The notes under the pieces: model-generated
What the model was told of the DNA's origin: nothing
Seen by the model: the letters and a program-made list of their open reading frames with translations, nothing else
Database searches by the model: none
Assembly (NCBI GenBank): GCA_947381945.1
Contig: CANCXM010000001.1
Location: forward strand, 62,001 to 126,000
Direction: 5' to 3'
Source: an uncultured Muribaculaceae bacterium
Lineage (GTDB): Bacteria > Bacteroidota > Bacteroidia > Bacteroidales > Muribaculaceae
DNA length: 64,000 bases
Part shown: piece after piece, positions 7,792 through 50,492 of the stretch
How the letters are laid out: every line of letters begins with the position of its first letter
How positions within the stretch are numbered: the stretch's first letter is position 1
Program-made: the position numbers and the translations under genes

Positions 7792-8751
7792 TCAGTCCGA
7801 AATTTTTCTCCTTATGATTTTTTGTGACCGGGTAAGCTCGATTTGCGGGACGGTTATGATTGCTTTCGGAGCGCGTTTTGGTCCGGTCAGTTCCCTCACT
7901 TTGTCGAGCAGGTCGGCCGGAAGCCGGGTAGAGTCTGTAACGATGATGGCTTCCTCACCCCAGCGCTCAGACGGCCGGGAAGTGACGTAGAAGCGTATGG
8001 AGTTGTCAACCAATGGCGTGATGAGCTTTTCGATTTCCTCCGGGAAGATTTTTATTCCTCCGGAGTTGATGACGTTGTCGTAGCGTCCGAGCCATCGGAA
8101 TTTTGTCGGCGAATGAAGCTCGACAATGTCATTGGTGATAAGGCGGTGAAATGAAAGCGTCTCGCTTTTGATAGACAGACAACCGCGTTCGTCAAGTGAA
8201 AAAGTGAATCCCGGAAGAGCGTCAAAGCAGTCATTGCCGAGTCGGCGGAGTGCCACATGGCTGCATGTTTCCGTCATCCCGTATGTAGCGTAAGCCGGAA
8301 TTCCGGCTTTGAGAACTTCCCGTTCAGCTTCGGGCGCAAGCGGTGCGCCGCCGATTATCATTGCTTTGATTGTGGAGCGGAATGGCGATGCGAGGACCGC
8401 ATCGACCTGCGAGGGGACTATTGGCAGGAGCGATATTTCACTGATGGTCGGAGGAAGGGTGAGGGCAGGCCGGTTTGACGGCGATTCAACGATGAGGTTG
8501 CATCCGGCTTCGAGTGCGCGCACAATCTGCATTTTTCCTGCGATGTAGTCAGGTGAAAGCGGGAGATAGAGGGTCGAATTCTCGCGTATACCGAAAAATT
8601 GCAGCGTGGCTTTCGCGGAAGCGCGCATGTCTGATTTCAGCAGCCTGATTTCCTTGGGGGTGCCTGTTGAACCTGAAGTATGGGCCACGACGTATGGACG
8701 TGAATCGCGCCATTCGTCAATGAACTCCTTTGCATCCGGTGTGAGAATCAT
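7792..8751 (-). CDS. menE: o-Succinylbenzoate-CoA ligase (menaquinone synthesis)
   Basis: Acyl-adenylate-forming enzyme that activates o-succinylbenzoate to its CoA ester in menaquinone biosynthesis. The ATP-binding P-loop TSGSTGTPK, the YGMTETCSH motif and the hinge aspartate in LGRYDNVINSGG are all visible, and a terminal lysine lies in the SQKIIRRK tail. At about 320 residues it is shorter than the 450-500 residues common in other phyla, as is usual for Bacteroidales. I chose the ATG at 8751 because it overlaps the menC stop as ATGA. An upstream ATG at 8778 would give a 30-base overlap. Confidence 0.9.
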   Translation of the reverse strand: MILTPDAKEFIDEWRDSRPYVVAHTSGSTGTPKEIRLLKSDMRASAKATLQFFGIRENSTLYLPLSPDYIAGKMQIVRALEAGCNLIVESPSNRPALTLPPTISEISLLPIVPSQVDAVLASPFRSTIKAMIIGGAPLAPEAEREVLKAGIPAYATYGMTETCSHVALRRLGNDCFDALPGFTFSLDERGCLSIKSETLSFHRLITNDIVELHSPTKFRWLGRYDNVINSGGIKIFPEEIEKLITPLVDNSIRFYVTSRPSERWGEEAIIVTDSTRLPADLLDKVRELTGPKRAPKAIITVPQIELTRSQKIIRRKISD

Positions 8752-12886: not shown

Positions 12887-15800
12887 TTATTTGCCTACGG
12901 TCAGTTGCAGGCCGGAAGTGTGGGCGGTGAATTGGGGGGCGTATTGACTCTGGGCTGTCGCTATGCCGGAGGCAAAAGTGCCGGAGTTGTTGACCCACAT
13001 ATCGTAGGTGAGTAAATACGTTCCCTTGGGGAGATGGTCAATGAAGAGGCGGGTGGATGCATCGCGGTTTTCGCGATAGAAATAGATTCCCTCTGCAAAT
13101 ATAGGGGTTGGAAGCTGTTCCACCGGCTCGTAGCAGGCAGGGCGCTCGTCGACGATTGTGACATAGTCCATATCGCGGTCAACACGGAGAGTGAGGGTCA
13201 CTGTCACCTTGTCGCCGACTTTCATCTCGTCGGTGTAGCTGCCGTTGATTGCAAACTGCTTTTCAATTGACAGTTCCGGGCAGGCATGTGCCTTGACTGA
13301 GGTCATGGAGTCGGTGTAGAGATAGAAGAGTGCGCCCCACGAGGGAGAGTTGCTTTCGCGGGTGACTTTCATAGAGCCCTTCGACTTGCTGTCGAGAGCG
13401 AGAGGTGTGCGGAAGTATCCGGTCATTCTCTCCACGTTGTCTGGTTCAACTTTCTTACCGGCAACCGTGATTTTAGCTGTGCGCGCAGGTTCAACCCACT
13501 TTGACGAGGTTGAAAGTATCGCTGCAATAGCTGATGAAGTGGTCACAGACGTACCCCAGTCCTTGGCTTCCTTCTGAAGAATGAGCCATTGACGGATTCT
13601 GTCGATGTCCTGACAGCCGGGGTCGACGGCGGCAAATGTCTCAAGAAGCATTGCTGTCGTTCCGACTTTGCCCATTGACCAAAGGGTCATGTTGTCGAGT
13701 GACGGCCACCACATACCTTTTTCCGGAGTGTATTCCGAATATTGGCGCAGCGATTCAAGAATGGTTCCGGCCACAGCCGCATTGGAGTTGTCGGCGAGAA
13801 TCCGGGCATAGATACCCTTGTCGAATACCGATGCTGATTTCCAATCGGCAATGATGCGCTGGGTGGTGGCGGTTATGATGGCGCTGTTGGTTTTCGGGGC
13901 GCCTTTCATGTCCTTGAAGCGGTCACGGAGGTAGACATAGAGTGTGAAATCGGTCTTCGGATACTTGCGGAAGGTGGTTGCAGCTTCCGAGTCAAGCCAT
14001 CCGAGGGCAGAGCAGATCATTTTTGTCAGGTCGGCAGACTCGGGAAGGTAGCCGAGCGAACGGAGTTGACCAAAGAGGAGAAGCACATTCTCTGTAGCCC
14101 ACTTCGAAGCCTTCGTCCCATACGAATTCCACGCCCATCCGCCATTTCCGCGCACGAGTTTCTTAAGGGTCGCGATGTTGGCCTTGACGGTCGAGTTGAC
14201 GGTCTTCTCGTCGAAGAGGAGCGAGAGACGGCTCATGCGTTCACTGTCGTTTTTCGCATCGAGCATCCAAGGAGTGGATGCAAGAAGCACTTGCTTGAGA
14301 TCCTCGTTGCGTTCGAGCATTGATGTGAGGGTCCGGTCACTCTTATCGCTTGCAGCCCATTCTTTGAACGCTTCGGCGATGACGGGATTATCGCGCAGGA
14401 GACCAGAAGCAATGGCAGCCGAGAAGATTGAGGCTGCGGCTTCATTGGCAGTGGAGGCTTCGATGTCGAGAAGGCCGGGGAGGGCGGTCACGACATACCA
14501 GACCGGATTCTCGCAGAACTGGAGTGTCACGCGGGCATTGGCCGGCACTTTCGGAAGGGCCATACTGAAATCTTTCTCATCAGGAGCGATGTAGAACGGA
14601 TATGTGTCGATGACCGGACTGACAGCCGGGAGGACAGGCAACAAGGTCTGCTCTCCATCGGCAAAATGGTCGGTCGACGACTTGATGCGGTAGCCGATGA
14701 ACGGAGCATCGGTAGGAGCGGTCAGGGCTGTGGTCACGACCGCAGAGGAGCCTGCTGCGATTACGTTGTTCTCAGTATATTCACCGATGGTCTTGCCGTC
14801 GGCAGCATTGAAAATCTCAACGCGGGTCTCGATCGTCTGCTCGCTGTCGCTTCCGTTCATGACCGAGGCGTTGACGGTCACGACATCACCTGCGCGCACG
14901 AAGCGTGGGAGATTCGGCTGAACCATCACCGGCTTGTTAGCCATGACATCGGCTGAGAAAGTGGTCGACATCAGCGAATCAGTATAGGCAAGTGCCTTGA
15001 AACCCCAGGTGGTATTGGCATTGGGAACGGTAAAGGTGAACGAGAGACGACCTTCACTGTCAGTCGTGAGCATCGGTTTGAAAAATGCCAACGGCACCTC
15101 ACGGTCGCGGAAGGTGAATGGAATCTCATTTCCGGTCTCATTTCCGACGCTTCCACTCTCGGATGCAGCATCCTCTTCGGCTTCGGCCTTGGCGGCAGCT
15201 CCGGCTCCTGCATCGTAGCCTGCATTGTCGGAATCAGCCATTACGGACATTGACATGTTGGCTGCGGCGGCTTCATATACCATCACCTCCTCTTTGTGCT
15301 CTCTGACCACATTCAAATCATCAGTGCCTGCCGACATCGTAGCCGCCGATTTGGCAAGCATACGGGAGCCGCGAATGCGGATAGTGGACGGCGAGAGTGA
15401 GAGTCCGTAGGTATTGAAATCCGGTTGCATCAGTTCGACAACCGAGAGATATTTTCCGGGAAGATAGGTGGTGGAGACGCGTCCGCGTGATGTCATGTCG
15501 GACTGGTTCCATGAGTAGTAATACTTGGCCCCCTGCGAGACAGGATTGAATGTCCATGATTGAGAGGCCAGAGCATCGAGAGCCGTATTATACATGTCGA
15601 GGACCACGGCTGCCTTGCGGCCATTCTCCGATTCGTCGACTATGCGGAATGTCCATGTCTCCTCGCTGCCGGGGATGAGCCGGTTGCGGAATGATTCGGT
15701 GATGAAGCGGATGTCTTTACGGGTGACATCGCGGGTGAGAGTGACGTTGGCAGTCGCGTTACGGTAGTTTCCGGTCACTGCAATCTCCATCACGGCCTCG

Positions 15801-33438: not shown

Positions 33439-35010
33439 ATGAAAAATTTTATCTTCGGTTTATTTGCCTTATTATTCCTATATTATCCCCCTGTTGTCCA
33501 TTCGGCAGCAGCTCCGTCGACTAATGACGATTATCTGGAGCAGCTTGATAAGGAATTAACACATAGGAGGGAGTATATAGCTGTGCGTCAGCATAAGGTC
33601 GATTCGGTAAAAAAGGTTTTAGATGCCGATTCGGTTATTTCATTCAAGGACTATTTGACGCTTGGAGATTTGATTGGCCCGCTTAATGCCGATTCGGCTA
33701 TTGTTGCCTTCTCGCTCGGATATGATGCAGCGATCGCTGCCAATGACAGTGTAGGTGCGCAGCGCTGTATGATTTCACGCATCACTGAACTGCGCAAACT
33801 CAATTCCACTCCCGAAGCCGTGCGCGATATGATGGCGATTTCGCGTTTGGGCATCTATGATGAAAATAAAGAGATGTATTACAGGGCTTCGCGTGACATG
33901 TACTATACCATTGCCGAGATTTTCGAGGGTACGGCTATACATGACAACTATATTCGTCCCGGTCTGGAATTTGCGCGCAAGTATCAGGCATGTCTGGATC
34001 CGGAGTCGTATGCCGCCAAGCTTAATGTCGCCATGGTCTACTATGCACAGGGCAACGATGTGATGTTTCTTGCTTCCCTGATGGAAATGGCCAACGAGAT
34101 TCCGGAGGAACATCCTCTATATTCGATGATAATGACAGCTCTCGGCGGCCGATATGTGATACTTGGTAAACCGGAAGAAGGGGTGCCATATCTTGCAAAA
34201 GCTGCCATCAAGGAGGTGCGCACAGGCGACCGTCAGGGCACAGCTCTCATCCGTCTCGGCACGGCGCTCTATGAACTGAATGATCTCGTCAGGGCTCACA
34301 ACTACCTTGCGATAGCCCTCGAACAGGCAGTTGCAGGTGGCGCGAAGACCAACAGTATGATGATTTCAAGCGCATTCATGCCTGTTTCTAATGAATTGCG
34401 CGGGCAGGAGCAGACCCGCCTGCTGCTCCTGATTGGACTTGTGATAAGCCTTGGAATCGGCATAGTGCTGCTGTGGCGTCTCTACAGCGGGAAAAACCGC
34501 CGTGCGCTCGAACTTGAGAGGGTCAAACAGCAGTTGGCCGTGGCAAATATGTCGAAGGAAGCCTATATAGCTGATTTTATGAATCTTTCGTCGAGCTTCA
34601 TGGAGGGACTTGAAGAGTTCAACCGTATATGTAAGCGGAAAATAACTGCCGGACAGATTGACGATCTGCTCAACATGATAAAAAGCGGAAAGTTCATCGA
34701 GGAACAGCGCGGTAAGTTCGATGATATTTTTGACGACTCTTTCCTTGCGCTTTATCCTACTTTCATCGAGGATGTCAACAAACTGCTCCTTCCTGACAAA
34801 CGGATTGTCACTCCCGCGAAGAATGTTTTGTCGACGGAGCTCCGTGTGCTTGCGTTCACTCGGCTTGGCGTCGATGATACGGCCCGCGTGGCCCGTTTCC
34901 TCGGGGTGACATTGAACACCATCTACACATATCGCAACAAACTCCGCAACAAGGCCATTTCACGCGAAACCTTTGATGCGGATGTGATGAAAATCGGCTT
35001 GATTGACTGA
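33439..35010 (+). CDS. DUF6377 membrane-anchored regulator with TPR-like sensor and HTH
   Basis: A 523-residue protein with three parts. After an N-terminal signal (cleavage near residue 22) comes an all-helical TPR-like region (about 30-320) expected in the periplasm. Then a single membrane helix (about 331-350, LLLLIGLVISLGIGIVLLW). Finally a cytoplasmic coiled coil and a C-terminal helix-turn-helix (about 455-515, including RLGVDDTARVARFLGVTLNTIY). This is the layout of Bacteroidales DUF6377 proteins, thought to be one-component membrane regulators. The signal sensed and the target genes are unknown, and no glycan-utilisation genes adjoin it. Confidence 0.8.
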   Translation: MKNFIFGLFALLFLYYPPVVHSAAAPSTNDDYLEQLDKELTHRREYIAVRQHKVDSVKKVLDADSVISFKDYLTLGDLIGPLNADSAIVAFSLGYDAAIAANDSVGAQRCMISRITELRKLNSTPEAVRDMMAISRLGIYDENKEMYYRASRDMYYTIAEIFEGTAIHDNYIRPGLEFARKYQACLDPESYAAKLNVAMVYYAQGNDVMFLASLMEMANEIPEEHPLYSMIMTALGGRYVILGKPEEGVPYLAKAAIKEVRTGDRQGTALIRLGTALYELNDLVRAHNYLAIALEQAVAGGAKTNSMMISSAFMPVSNELRGQEQTRLLLLIGLVISLGIGIVLLWRLYSGKNRRALELERVKQQLAVANMSKEAYIADFMNLSSSFMEGLEEFNRICKRKITAGQIDDLLNMIKSGKFIEEQRGKFDDIFDDSFLALYPTFIEDVNKLLLPDKRIVTPAKNVLSTELRVLAFTRLGVDDTARVARFLGVTLNTIYTYRNKLRNKAISRETFDADVMKIGLID

Positions 35011-35030: not shown

Positions 35031-35195
35031 GCTGCCGACAGATGCGTAGGTGTGAACAATCGATTGGATTGAACTTATATTACATGTATGATATATTGTG
35101 TGCAATATTATGAAAATCAGATTGTTGCATGAATAAGCCTTTTTTAGCGCCTTATATTGGAAAAATACCCTATTGCATTGACATGAAAAAGCCTA

Positions 35196-35378
35196 TATCT
35201 TTGCGTTATAATAATAAACGACCAAAGTATTTTCTGATAATAGAGATTATAGAATATAGGTAAGATTTAGATGTAATAGGTATAAAAGATTTGTTTTTCG
35301 TTAGATTTAGAAGAACTATTAAAACTACGTTAGATTCTGTTGAGAGCAGTCCTCGTGAGGAAGACCGCTCTTTTTTTG
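35196..35378 (+). ncRNA. Candidate small RNA 1
   Basis: TATCTTTG at 35196-35203, with ATTG at 35172-35175 (20-base spacer), forms a credible promoter in a gene-free stretch. About 165 bases downstream, complementary arms 35343-35351 and 35363-35371 (one mismatch) precede a run of T residues to 35377, a Rho-independent terminator. No convincing reading frame lies between. The transcript (about 35210-35378) is A+T-rich. The terminator loop reads CCTCGTGAGGAAG, nearly the same as in candidate 2. It does not resemble 6S RNA, tmRNA or another RNA I recognise. Confidence 0.4.
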
Positions 35379-35748
35379 TGCGTATATTTGCTCTTTGCCA
35401 TTCAGAAGGCCGGTTTTGGCCCTGGCTGTCACCTGTTGGTTCCGCTTATTATATGGAACCTGTTGGCACGGTCTGGGGCATGTCGCTTTGTGTCGGTCGT
35501 TAGGCGTTGTGAAATCCTTTTGTCTGACTCCCCGGATGAAGCCATTGTTGAGCTGAGAATGTGATTTATGGGTATAAAATGTTATATAAATGTAGGATTT
35601 ACACCATTTGCAGCATTATATTGCTGTTTAGATCAATTGTTTCGGTCGTTAAAAATAAGTGCGTGATAATAAGACTGATACTAATTTAAAAATTGAGATT
35701 TTATTTAGAATATACGATAAAGTGCCCTCGGCAGGCTTGCGAATGAAC
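35379..35748. other. Gene-free stretch between the two candidate small RNAs
   Basis: Two overlapping short open frames (35291-35503 and 35340-35564) run through the first terminator and have no recognisable protein features, so I treat them as chance. From about 35570 the sequence is A+T-rich with no further signal. Confidence 0.4.
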
Positions 35749-35895
35749 TACCTTTGCGATGTGTAAAATTTTAATCAGTTTTTGGATTGTGATAATCACG
35801 CATTTTAAGTGAAGATTATTCGTTAATTATGCTAAGTGTTTAAACAACGTTTTTTAATCAAGGCCACCTCGTGAGAAGTGGCCTTGATTGTTTTG
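35749..35895 (+). ncRNA. Candidate small RNA 2
   Basis: TACCTTTG at 35749-35756 could be a -7 box, although I see no good -33. A strong terminator follows: perfect 12-base arms 35856-35867 and 35878-35889 and a T-rich tail (TGTTTTG). Its loop (CTCGTGAGAA, closed by AC/GT) almost repeats that of candidate 1. The predicted RNA is about 130 bases and has no reading frame. The hairpin also lies just beyond the 3' end of the convergent transporter gene (35936) and may terminate that transcript. Confidence 0.35.
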
Positions 35896-35935
35896 TTTCG
35901 GATGTCTGCATGACGTGTCTGCCTCGGCAGCTATG

Positions 35936-36850
35936 TCATTTGTTCTCTTCTTTTACGGGGGCGGCCTTGCTTATGGTCACAAGGTAGACGCCGGAGAAGA
36001 TGAGCGCGACAGCCATGACCTTTACAGGGGTGAAGCGGTCAAGTCCGAGATAGACTCCGATGAGTGAAGCCACGATAGGTTGCACATAGTTATACATGCC
36101 CACGAGCGTAGGGCGGAGATTTTTCTGGCCTATCATAGTAAGAATGTATGCAAGGAAGGTTGCTATCACGACAACATAACCGACACCGGCGATTTCCGTC
36201 CTGGAGATTGCACTCCAGTCGGTCGACAGCCATTCATTTATAGATATTGGAAGTGCCACCATTGCTGCGAAGGTGAACATCCACTTCATCAGTGTGAACA
36301 CTGAGTATTTCTTTATGAAGTTCTTGTAGAAGGTCAGATATAGGGCGTAGCTAAGCTGGGCGGTCAATACCAGGAGGTCGCCGAGCATGGGGTTGTCACC
36401 TTTCATGGCTGACTTTGCTCCGCCAAACACGAGCAGCAAGGCGCCTGCCGCACCGAGGGCGATGCCTCCGGCTTTCTTCCATGTGATGGGTTCTTTCAGA
36501 ATCACGGCGGCAAGAAGCATCACCCATATCGGCATTGTGGTTGTGATGATGGATGCCTCGCCCGGCGAAGTGAAACCTATGCCTGAGATGTAGCTTCCCT
36601 GATTGAATACGATTCCGAGCATACCTGCTCCGGCCATCTTCATCAGATCGCGGGCAGGGACATGCTCGCGTTTAGTGAATATCGACGCGATCCAGAAGAG
36701 TATGGCTGCGCCGAGGATGCGGAAGTTGGTGAGGAGTATGGGTGAGATAACCCCTGCTGTAAGCACAATTTTTGCTATCGGAGCCATCATCCCCCAGGTT
36801 GTATTTGCTCCGAGCATTGCAAGGTGGCCCTTAAGTTTGAAATCTTTCAT
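35936..36850 (-). CDS. EamA/DMT-superfamily transporter
   Basis: A 304-residue drug/metabolite transporter with ten predicted helices in two EamA repeats (about 8-145 and 155-295). Recognisable parts are GANTTWGMMAPIAK near the start and YNYVQPIVASLIGVYLGLD in the second repeat. Substrate unknown, with metabolite or amino-acid export common in the family. An in-frame ATG at 36994 would add 48 residues, but the consensus promoter at 36944-36914 places the transcription start downstream of it. I therefore take the ATG at 36850 (MKDFKLKGHLAMLG). Confidence 0.88.
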   Translation of the reverse strand: MKDFKLKGHLAMLGANTTWGMMAPIAKIVLTAGVISPILLTNFRILGAAILFWIASIFTKREHVPARDLMKMAGAGMLGIVFNQGSYISGIGFTSPGEASIITTTMPIWVMLLAAVILKEPITWKKAGGIALGAAGALLLVFGGAKSAMKGDNPMLGDLLVLTAQLSYALYLTFYKNFIKKYSVFTLMKWMFTFAAMVALPISINEWLSTDWSAISRTEIAGVGYVVVIATFLAYILTMIGQKNLRPTLVGMYNYVQPIVASLIGVYLGLDRFTPVKVMAVALIFSGVYLVTISKAAPVKEENK

Positions 36851-50058: not shown

Positions 50059-50492
50059 TTGCTTTAAGCTATAAAGTTGCTTAGACAGCAGTTGGTGCCG
50101 TATGGCGGCCGGGTACCTCCCGTAGGGTGCTTCGGCTGTAGAGGCGACGAAAAGAAGCGGGCGCAGTCCGGATATGGACTGCGTCCGCTTTATGAGAAAC
50201 CACGCCGGAGGAAGATGATGAAACTCCGAATGACAGGATTTGAGTGCTCGCCGACCTTTGTAATCCTCCGGGCAATTACGCCTCCCCCGAAGGGGCTGAG
50301 GCCCGCCATTGGGCGACTAAGCTTGTCTCGGTATTTCAAAAATAATTGATGAGTTTCCCAATCGTGCTCCGGCGCGGGAAATTTTTTGTCTCTTCAATTT
50401 TACAACACAAAATTAGTGTATTTCGTTTGATTTTCCAAATAGGAATATCAAAAATTTTTATCGGATGGATGGGGCAGTGGGATGTAAAAGAA
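50059..50492. other. Gene-free stretch with a strong hairpin at 50155-50190
   Basis: Fifteen-base arms (50155-50169, 50176-50190, one G-U pair) form a hairpin that would have a T-rich tail when read on the minus strand. Two overlapping short open frames here (50077-50349 plus, 50081-50275 minus) have no protein-like features. The rest shows no signal I can interpret. Confidence 0.45.

What the first reader, a model, noticed from the sequence alone, without database searches (positions are those of the whole stretch)
35172..35895. Two tandem small-RNA candidates with near-identical terminator loops
The 0.9-kb gap after the DUF6377 regulator contains two promoter-to-terminator units without reading frames. 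Their terminator stems differ in sequence, yet the loops read CCTCGTGAGGAAG and CCTCGTGAGAAG. Stems that diverge while the loop is kept suggest a functional seed, for base-pairing with mRNA or binding a protein. I do not recognise either RNA.
Basis: partly seen in the sequence, partly recalled or inferred. Interest (0 to 1): 0.55.

Follow-up and report, generated by a model that had tools for sequence, protein, structure and literature searches.

The report
Regulator-linked small RNAs with capped terminators

Summary
The 925-bp gap after the DUF6377 gene holds two promoter-to-terminator units whose hairpin tips read CCTCGTGAGGAAG and CCTCGTGAGAAG. Both units are conserved in part of the genus (Duncaniella), unit 2 also in other Muribaculaceae. 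They are very probably small RNA (sRNA) genes, though no transcript was seen.

The tip is not a base-pairing seed: in orthologs its second base is any of the four (GTGA, GCGA, GGGA, GAGA), so it is a GNRA-type cap on a UC/GA stem. It is rare among other terminators sampled from this genome, but it caps the known sRNA family FopS in 26 of 26 loci parsed.

Beyond the finding: DUF6377 genes are often followed by capped terminators (27 of 80 loci, 19 of 72 without loci already known; control loop 0). Promoters beside them carry TTATATT boxes locked at -44 and -121 from the -7 box. Unit 1 has both exactly; unit 2 has weaker versions; FopS promoters have neither.

Best reading: a probably membrane-anchored regulator switches on the sRNAs beside it, which act on mRNAs through conserved unpaired segments and share a structural 3' cap. 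Regulation, targets and the cap's partner are inferred. My paper searches showed no such module.

The parts
33439..35010 (+). DUF6377 (PF19904) regulator gene: TPR superhelix, long helix, helical C-terminus with a helix-turn-helix-like pattern
   Evidence: Pfam PF19904 E 9e-55; AlphaFold model pLDDT 81 with TPR matches in PDB; membrane span and DNA binding inferred from the sequence, not shown
35075..35081 (+). TTATATT box at -121 from the unit 1 -7 box (putative regulator site)
   Evidence: offset locked across DUF6377 loci
35152..35158 (+). TTATATT box at -44 from the unit 1 -7 box (putative regulator site)
   Evidence: offset locked across DUF6377 loci
35196..35204 (+). unit 1 -7 promoter box TATCTTTGC
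   Evidence: invariant or nearly so in 11 sequences
35209..35377 (+). sRNA unit 1 (start approximate, about 170 nt)
   Evidence: aligned in 11 genus members, each time downstream of DUF6377
35342..35377 (+). unit 1 intrinsic terminator with GUGAG pentaloop cap and T run
35628..35634 (+). TTAGATC, degenerate box at -121 from the unit 2 -7 box
   Evidence: read by eye; weak
35705..35711 (+). TTAGAAT, degenerate box at -44 from the unit 2 -7 box (TTATAAT in G017, G020, G025 by eye), next to TACGATA at -36 in 6 of 13 genus members
   Evidence: weak
35749..35757 (+). unit 2 -7 promoter box TACCTTTGC
35759..35897 (+). sRNA unit 2 (start approximate, about 140 nt)
   Evidence: 13 genus members aligned; other genera L112, L113, L201, L204, L213
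35761..35780 (+). near-invariant 5' segment GTGTAAAATTTTAATCAGTT of unit 2: best candidate for a pairing seed
   Evidence: pairing itself not shown
35855..35897 (+). unit 2 intrinsic terminator with GUGA tetraloop cap
   Evidence: (11 pairs with two-sided changes)

Best explanation
The gap holds two intergenic sRNA genes that belong with the neighbouring DUF6377 gene. Inferred: the DUF6377 protein, a TPR-containing and probably membrane-anchored regulator with a helix-turn-helix-like C-terminus, binds phased TTTATATT boxes about 44 and 121 bp upstream of the -7 box and turns on unit 1, and probably unit 2 through degenerate versions of the same boxes. Each RNA runs about 140-170 nt to an intrinsic terminator whose hairpin is closed by a UC/GA stem and a GNGA or GNGA+N loop. 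Shown by comparison: the stem changes with compensation, while the cap keeps its GNRA-type form and not its exact letters. The RNAs most likely act on mRNAs by pairing through conserved unpaired segments (5' end of unit 2, internal segments of unit 1), while the cap gives a compact 3' end, possibly recognised by a shared protein. Targets, regulation and the cap's partner are inferred, not shown.
For: Units conserved: unit 1 aligned in 11 and unit 2 in 13 genus members, 10 carrying both; unit 1 follows DUF6377 in 11 of 11, unit 2 in 10 of 13, while the next gene changes. Unit 2 stem covariation and loop variation. Cap scarce elsewhere in the genome. DUF6377 link found three ways: the covariance model of unit 2 or the 11-mer led to loci of which 16 of 27 distinct ones tested hold DUF6377; 9 of 30 DUF6377 genes of relatives have a capped terminator downstream, 4 of 25 if the five loci already known are left out; in 80 named DUF6377 loci 27 have one downstream on the same strand, against 1 on the opposite strand, 1 upstream +, 6 upstream -, 0 in the gene and 0 for control loops AGNG. 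Without the 8 loci used to define the units it is 19 of 72. Caps are on 19 of 26 orphan terminators with a promoter box but on 2 of 34 at CDS ends (Fisher 4.7e-8); without the 8 loci 16 of 22 against 2 of 21 (3.5e-5). TTATATT: 44 sites in 24 of 26 upstream regions of capped loci against a shuffle mean of 6.5 (max 12), reverse complement at chance; 6 of 104 background promoters. Offsets -44 (23) and -121 (22), no other above 4, among 412 boxes on the + strand; 21 and 18 among 356 boxes without the 8 loci. Unit 1 of the window has both exactly.
Against: No transcript data. Only part of the genus has the units: of 27 genus members searched (several incomplete) 11 gave unit 1 and 13 unit 2. Exact boxes are not universal in unit 1 orthologs: -44 in 4 of 11, -121 in 5 of 11, both in 2, none in G009. 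Own-genome classes do not separate caps: 1 of 20 CDS-end, 1 of 5 orphan, 3 of 13 other, and unit 1 itself falls below that scan's stem score. 53 of 80 DUF6377 loci show no downstream capped terminator by my scan, although 14 of these carry a box at -44 or -121. TTATATT is also enriched after uncapped DUF6377 genes (26 sites in 16 of 52, shuffle 5.1), so it marks the DUF6377 neighbourhood more than the cap. G013, G015 and G026 keep unit 2 without DUF6377 beside it, and the capped RNA at C35 and the loci L113, L206, L209, L212, L213 lack it too. Unit 2 of the window lacks exact boxes. The unit 1 terminator is only moderately stable (z -1.3). Related loci are not independent.
Confidence: 0.7

Rival explanations
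1. The cap is only a stable GNRA tetraloop that helps the terminator hairpin fold, kept by descent and by terminator strength, with no partner of its own.
For: GNRA loops are stable (recalled); the loop's second base is free and length varies 4/5, as stability alone allows.
Against: Terminators at CDS ends in the same loci rarely use it (2 of 34 against 19 of 26 orphans). The third base is G in all 11 unit 1 and 13 unit 2 sequences aligned and in the 26 FopS loops parsed, although the GNRA class also allows A there.
Confidence: 0.4
2. The loop CCTCGTGAG is itself a seed that base-pairs with mRNA or kisses another loop.
For: The two tips in this window are nearly identical while stems differ.
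Against: In orthologs the loop reads GTGA, GCGA, GGGA or GAGA, unlike an antisense seed; the closing UC/GA pairs occupy most of the motif.
Confidence: 0.06
3. The DUF6377 link is only inherited gene order; the protein does not control the RNAs, and the TTATATT boxes serve another factor.
For: Some loci have the RNA without DUF6377, and many DUF6377 genes have no detectable capped RNA.
Against: The link spans loci with 31-41% identity of the DUF6377 protein while the RNAs themselves differ; the boxes are locked in position in DUF6377 loci and absent at those offsets from 30 FopS promoters.
Confidence: 0.2
4. One of the units is a small-protein gene or a leader of a neighbouring gene.
For: Unit 2 of the window can be read from the ATG at 35759 as a 17-aa ORF.
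Against: The frame is cut in G025, G011, G019, G015, G026 and the ATG is lost in G014; the next gene in the window is convergent and differs between relatives.
Confidence: 0.03

Closest known systems
FopS sRNA family (Rfam RF04319; PMC11697453, passages read)
   Same: Bacteroidales sRNAs with an unpaired 5' part and an intrinsic terminator; in Muribaculaceae the terminator is capped by UC-GNGA(N)-GA in 26 of 26 loci parsed of 30. Unit 1 has a weak resemblance to the FopS 5' region (p about 0.02).
   Different: Neither unit reaches the model; unit 2 has no 5' similarity; 30 FopS promoters have no TTATATT at -44 or -121.
BTnc231 (Rfam RF04180), northern-validated B. thetaiotaomicron sRNA (PMC7366714, passages read)
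   Same: Terminator cap CUUC-GUGA-GAAG; weak match to unit 2 (26.4 bits).
   Different: Far below the gathering score of 80.4; the middle of the RNA does not align.
GibS (Rfam RF04182; PMC7366714, passages read)
   Same: Conserved unpaired 5' seed plus terminator, as proposed for unit 2.
   Different: No match of either unit up to E 5; its GlcNAc response and targets were not tested here.
Regulator-sRNA neighbour pairs such as SgrR-SgrS or OxyR-OxyS of enterobacteria (recalled)
   Same: A transcription regulator gene beside the sRNA gene it may control.
   Different: Different regulator family (DUF6377), tandem here, two RNAs, different phylum; control not shown.

Membership tests
FopS (RF04319) | covariance model score at or above 56 bits | tested here: not met
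   window scan at gathering thresholds found only 6S and tRNA; no FopS match up to E 5 on the gap
FopS (RF04319) | R1 5' sequence (GGUAUUAGAUUUAAGGUUA region) | tested here: inconclusive
   local alignment: unit 1 p 0.017, unit 2 p 0.997, one test each of 34 sequences tried
FopS (RF04319) | binding by RbpB | not testable with these tools
   needs CLIP or EMSA
BTnc231 (RF04180) | covariance model score at or above 80.4 bits | tested here: not met
   26.4 bits for unit 2
intergenic bacterial sRNA | own promoter | tested here: met
   conserved -7 boxes at 35196 and 35749; activity not measured
intergenic bacterial sRNA | own intrinsic terminator | tested here: met
   unit 1 only moderately stable
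intergenic bacterial sRNA | no conserved reading frame | tested here: met
   frame-breaking length changes in the only suggestive ORF
intergenic bacterial sRNA | detected transcript and mRNA target | not testable with these tools
   no expression data; one candidate target site at chance level
GNRA tetraloop cap | G-N-R-A loop closed by C-G, free second base | tested here: met
   unit 2: GNGA in 11 of 13 sequences, GUGAU in 2; unit 1: GNGA+N pentaloop in 11 of 11, so unit 1 is GNRA-like and not a strict tetraloop

The most novel reading that the evidence does not exclude
A large class of Bacteroidales sRNAs (FopS, BTnc231, DUF6377-linked RNAs and others) carries a common 3' handle, the UC-GNGA(N)-GA capped terminator, recognised by a dedicated RNA-binding protein that does for this phylum what Hfq does at sRNA 3' ends elsewhere; one branch of the class is a regulon of sRNAs each switched on by an adjacent DUF6377 regulator through position-locked TTTATATT boxes.
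Probability: 0.2. Interest if true: 0.85.

Novelty: new variant of a known kind. Interest (0 to 1): 0.62.

Why it matters
Muribaculaceae are dominant gut bacteria of mice (recalled), yet the one search made for sRNAs of Duncaniella listed no paper on them by title or abstract start. If right, the work gives a gene-neighbourhood rule, an operator motif with fixed spacing and a terminator signature that together predict sRNA genes and their regulators across the family. It also makes a direct question testable: whether a shared 3' cap replaces Hfq-type recognition in a phylum thought to lack Hfq (recalled).

Tried and rejected
Rfam membership of either unit: rejected. Small ORF in unit 2: rejected. 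Loop as a seed: rejected on loop variation. Loop as a generic terminator loop of the genome or order: rejected. Unit 1 as a FopS member: weak similarity only. Target search with the complement of the unit 2 5' end: 7 matches including the gene itself, control 3. One lies just before the start codon of a gene that reads as a hybrid sensor kinase (L373; name from the sequence, no domain search), but 16 of 468 sampled start regions pair as well or better, so it is a lead only. A second hairpin after unit 2 (about 35909-35938) was not followed. L156 (own contig C20) repeats the unit 2 5' segment with two mismatches but reads as the start of an ORF, and was left unresolved. L211 among the model hits is GC-rich and judged spurious. 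Three of 30 CTTCGTGAGAAG loci met the terminator rule, one (L172) inside an ORF, so two are counted as convincing. L262, L263, L267 and L284 were left out of the FopS loop count because the motif was not found. L008 and L104 (G008) was a weak unit 2 hit that read as an unrelated promoter and was dropped from the alignments, as was L212 (G004), a weak unit 2-like hit.

Full report
What is there. The window very probably lies in a Duncaniella genome (Muribaculaceae): one genome placed in its genus, G011, has a contig of the same length as one of Duncaniella muris DSM 103720, carrying the same locus (L294). Between the DUF6377 gene (ends 35010) and a convergent EamA gene (ends at 35936) lie two units with -7 boxes at 35196 and 35749 and terminators at 35342-35377 and 35855-35897.

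Conservation. DNA searches of 61 relatives, 27 of them of the same genus and several incomplete, gave unit 1 in 11 genus members (A1) and unit 2 in 13 (A2), 10 carrying both. Matches listed in other genera by these two DNA searches are short and weak. Unit 1 follows DUF6377 in 11 of 11, unit 2 in 10 of 13; G009 has unit 1 only; G013, G015 and G026 have unit 2 without DUF6377 beside it. The gene after the units differs between relatives. In unit 2 the 5' segment GTGTAAAATTT(T)AATCAGTT is almost invariant, and a change of TTTT to TTT in five genomes rules out a conserved reading frame. In unit 1 the conserved stretches are internal.

The tip. In unit 2 the terminator stem has 11 pairs with changes on both sides, while U-A and C-G next to the loop never change in 13 sequences. 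The loop reads GTGA (7), GAGA (2), GCGA (1), GGGA (1) or GTGAT (2); unit 1 has GTGAG, GTGAT, GTGAA, GGGAA or GAGAT. So the kept feature is a GNRA-type cap (third base G in all 24) on a UC/GA stem. An antisense seed would not vary freely in its second base.

Is the tip generic? In the own genome CTCGTGAGAAG occurs once and CTCGTGAG 36 times (reversed control 48); 3 of 30 sites read are terminators, the third at C35 6538-6676 in a further non-coding gap. In 464 kb (window plus one 400-kb sample) 2 of 48 terminator-like hairpins were first parsed with GNRA(N) loops. A cap-specific scan finds 7 in the same DNA: these two, three near-identical units in L138, one GCAA hairpin in L135 and one doubtful window hairpin. 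In 149 family genomes CTCGTGAGAAG occurs in 72 (99 matches; reversed control about 68 by hand count); of 30 loci read 6 are terminators by eye, one being the window's own. In the order CTTCGTGAGAAG is in 47 of 198 genomes (57 matches, control about 40 by hand count); 3 of 30 loci read met the terminator rule, one of them inside an ORF. So the cap is not a general terminator feature.

Known RNAs with the cap. Rfam BTnc231 carries CUUC-GUGA-GAAG. Of 11 weak BTnc231 hits in other Bacteroidales families, 8 turned out to be FopS members over the gathering score; the FopS consensus loop is GUGAA. FopS was found in 119 of 119 Muribaculaceae genomes (113 over the cut-off), and in the 26 of 30 loci where I could parse it the cap was UC-GNGA(N)-GA every time. 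The RbpB/FopS paper (passages read) describes the seed and a terminator; a search of its main text for loop and tetraloop gave no hit.

The DUF6377 link. A covariance model of unit 2 matched 42 of 247 family genomes in 12 of 30 genera. Some hits are unit 2 orthologs (L201, L204, L213), others are different RNAs sharing mainly the cap. Of 29 entries from these searches tested with DUF6377 proteins (27 distinct loci; one, L200, from a genome used for the model) 16 hold a DUF6377 gene, L202 only weakly. Pfam confirms two. Reverse test: 9 of 30 DUF6377 loci of relatives have a capped terminator within 1.3 kb downstream, none elsewhere in those loci on that strand; five of the nine were already known, leaving 4 of 25. 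In 80 named loci, the best 80 of 270 found, 27 do, against 1 downstream on the other strand, 1 upstream on the same strand, 6 upstream on the other strand, 0 in the gene and 0 for the control loop AGNG; 32 loci have a hairpin of the same rule with any 4-5-nt loop. Eight of the 27 come from genomes that defined the units; without them it is 19 of 72. Caps sit on 19 of 26 orphan terminators with a promoter box, on 2 of 34 at CDS ends and on 0 of 13 others (Fisher 4.7e-8); without the eight loci 16 of 22 against 2 of 21 (3.5e-5). In the own-genome sample the same classes give 1 of 5, 1 of 20 and 3 of 13, which does not separate them, and unit 1 is below that scan's stem score.

The promoter code. 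Upstream of the capped RNAs TTATATT occurs 44 times in 24 of 26 loci (shuffles: mean 6.5, max 12), with the opposite strand at chance; it is also enriched after uncapped DUF6377 genes (26 sites in 16 of 52 loci, shuffle 5.1). Of 104 other promoters of the own genome 6 have it. Its position is locked: among 412 -7 boxes on the + strand of the 80 loci it stands at -44 in 23 and at -121 in 22, no other offset above 4; on the - strand (243 boxes) no offset exceeds 3. Without the eight loci it is 21 and 18 among 356 boxes, 11 boxes having both. Fourteen of the 53 loci without a detected cap have such a box, two of them (L325, L367) upstream of the DUF6377 gene, and in three (L317, L328, L332) a GTGA hairpin that my stem rule missed can be seen. 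Cap or locked promoter is present in 41 of 80 loci (33 of 72). Unit 1 of the window has TTATATT at exactly -44 (35152) and -121 (35075), the only box of 316 in the own sample with both. In the 11 unit 1 promoters the exact box is at -44 in 4, at -121 in 5, at both in 2; G011, G019 and G012 have it at other offsets and G009 not at all. Unit 2 of the window has TTAGAAT and TTAGATC at those places. None of 30 FopS promoters has the motif at either place.

Reading. The simplest account is a module: the DUF6377 protein (TPR superhelix, long helix, helical C-terminus; membrane span and helix-turn-helix inferred) recognises the phased boxes and controls the sRNA beside it. The RNAs then act by pairing through their unpaired conserved parts and share a structural 3' cap with FopS-type sRNAs. 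Regulation, targets and any cap-binding protein are not shown. Searches for DUF6377 (0 papers), for Bacteroides sRNA with GNRA tetraloop, for the BTnc names, for Bacteroides RNA families and for Duncaniella small RNA showed no description of such a module in the listings seen. The library is not complete, and most of the listed papers were not opened.

Noticed in passing
L138 (own contig C3) about 7911-8075, 8502-8666, 13302-13466: Three near-identical sRNA-like units (GCGTTATAATGG...GGCTGTC-GGGAT or GAGAT-GACAGCC) with the same type of cap, no Rfam match over gathering.
   Followed up: partly
own contig C35 6538-6676 (locus L029 about 1389-1527): A third capped sRNA candidate in the own genome, upstream of an ORF that reads like a sigma factor (from sequence, no domain search); no DUF6377 in the 3-kb locus.
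   Followed up: partly
119 Muribaculaceae genomes: FopS has a match in every genome examined (113 over the cut-off), several matches in most; the paper passages read describe it in Bacteroidaceae.
   Followed up: yes
L373 (own contig C15 53162-53179): A site complementary to the unit 2 5' end lies just before the start codon of a putative hybrid sensor kinase; match quality is at chance level.
   Followed up: partly
L156 (own contig C20 526-543): GCGTAAAATTTTTATCAGTCCAAGGATTG, close to the unit 2 5' end and its relatives in other genera, at the start of a short ORF.
   Followed up: no
window 50192-50374 (-): 6S RNA (Bacteroidales-1) next to tRNA-Glu; the terminator-like hairpin beside it has no such cap.
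   Followed up: no
upstream of the unit 2 promoter in 11 of 13 genus members: TGTTATAT recurs 135-169 bp upstream of the unit 2 -7 box, also in G015 and G026 where DUF6377 is absent; G013 and G014 lack it.
   Followed up: no
6 of 80 DUF6377 loci: A capped terminator lies upstream of the DUF6377 gene on the opposite strand, suggesting divergent regulator-sRNA pairs in some genera.
   Followed up: no
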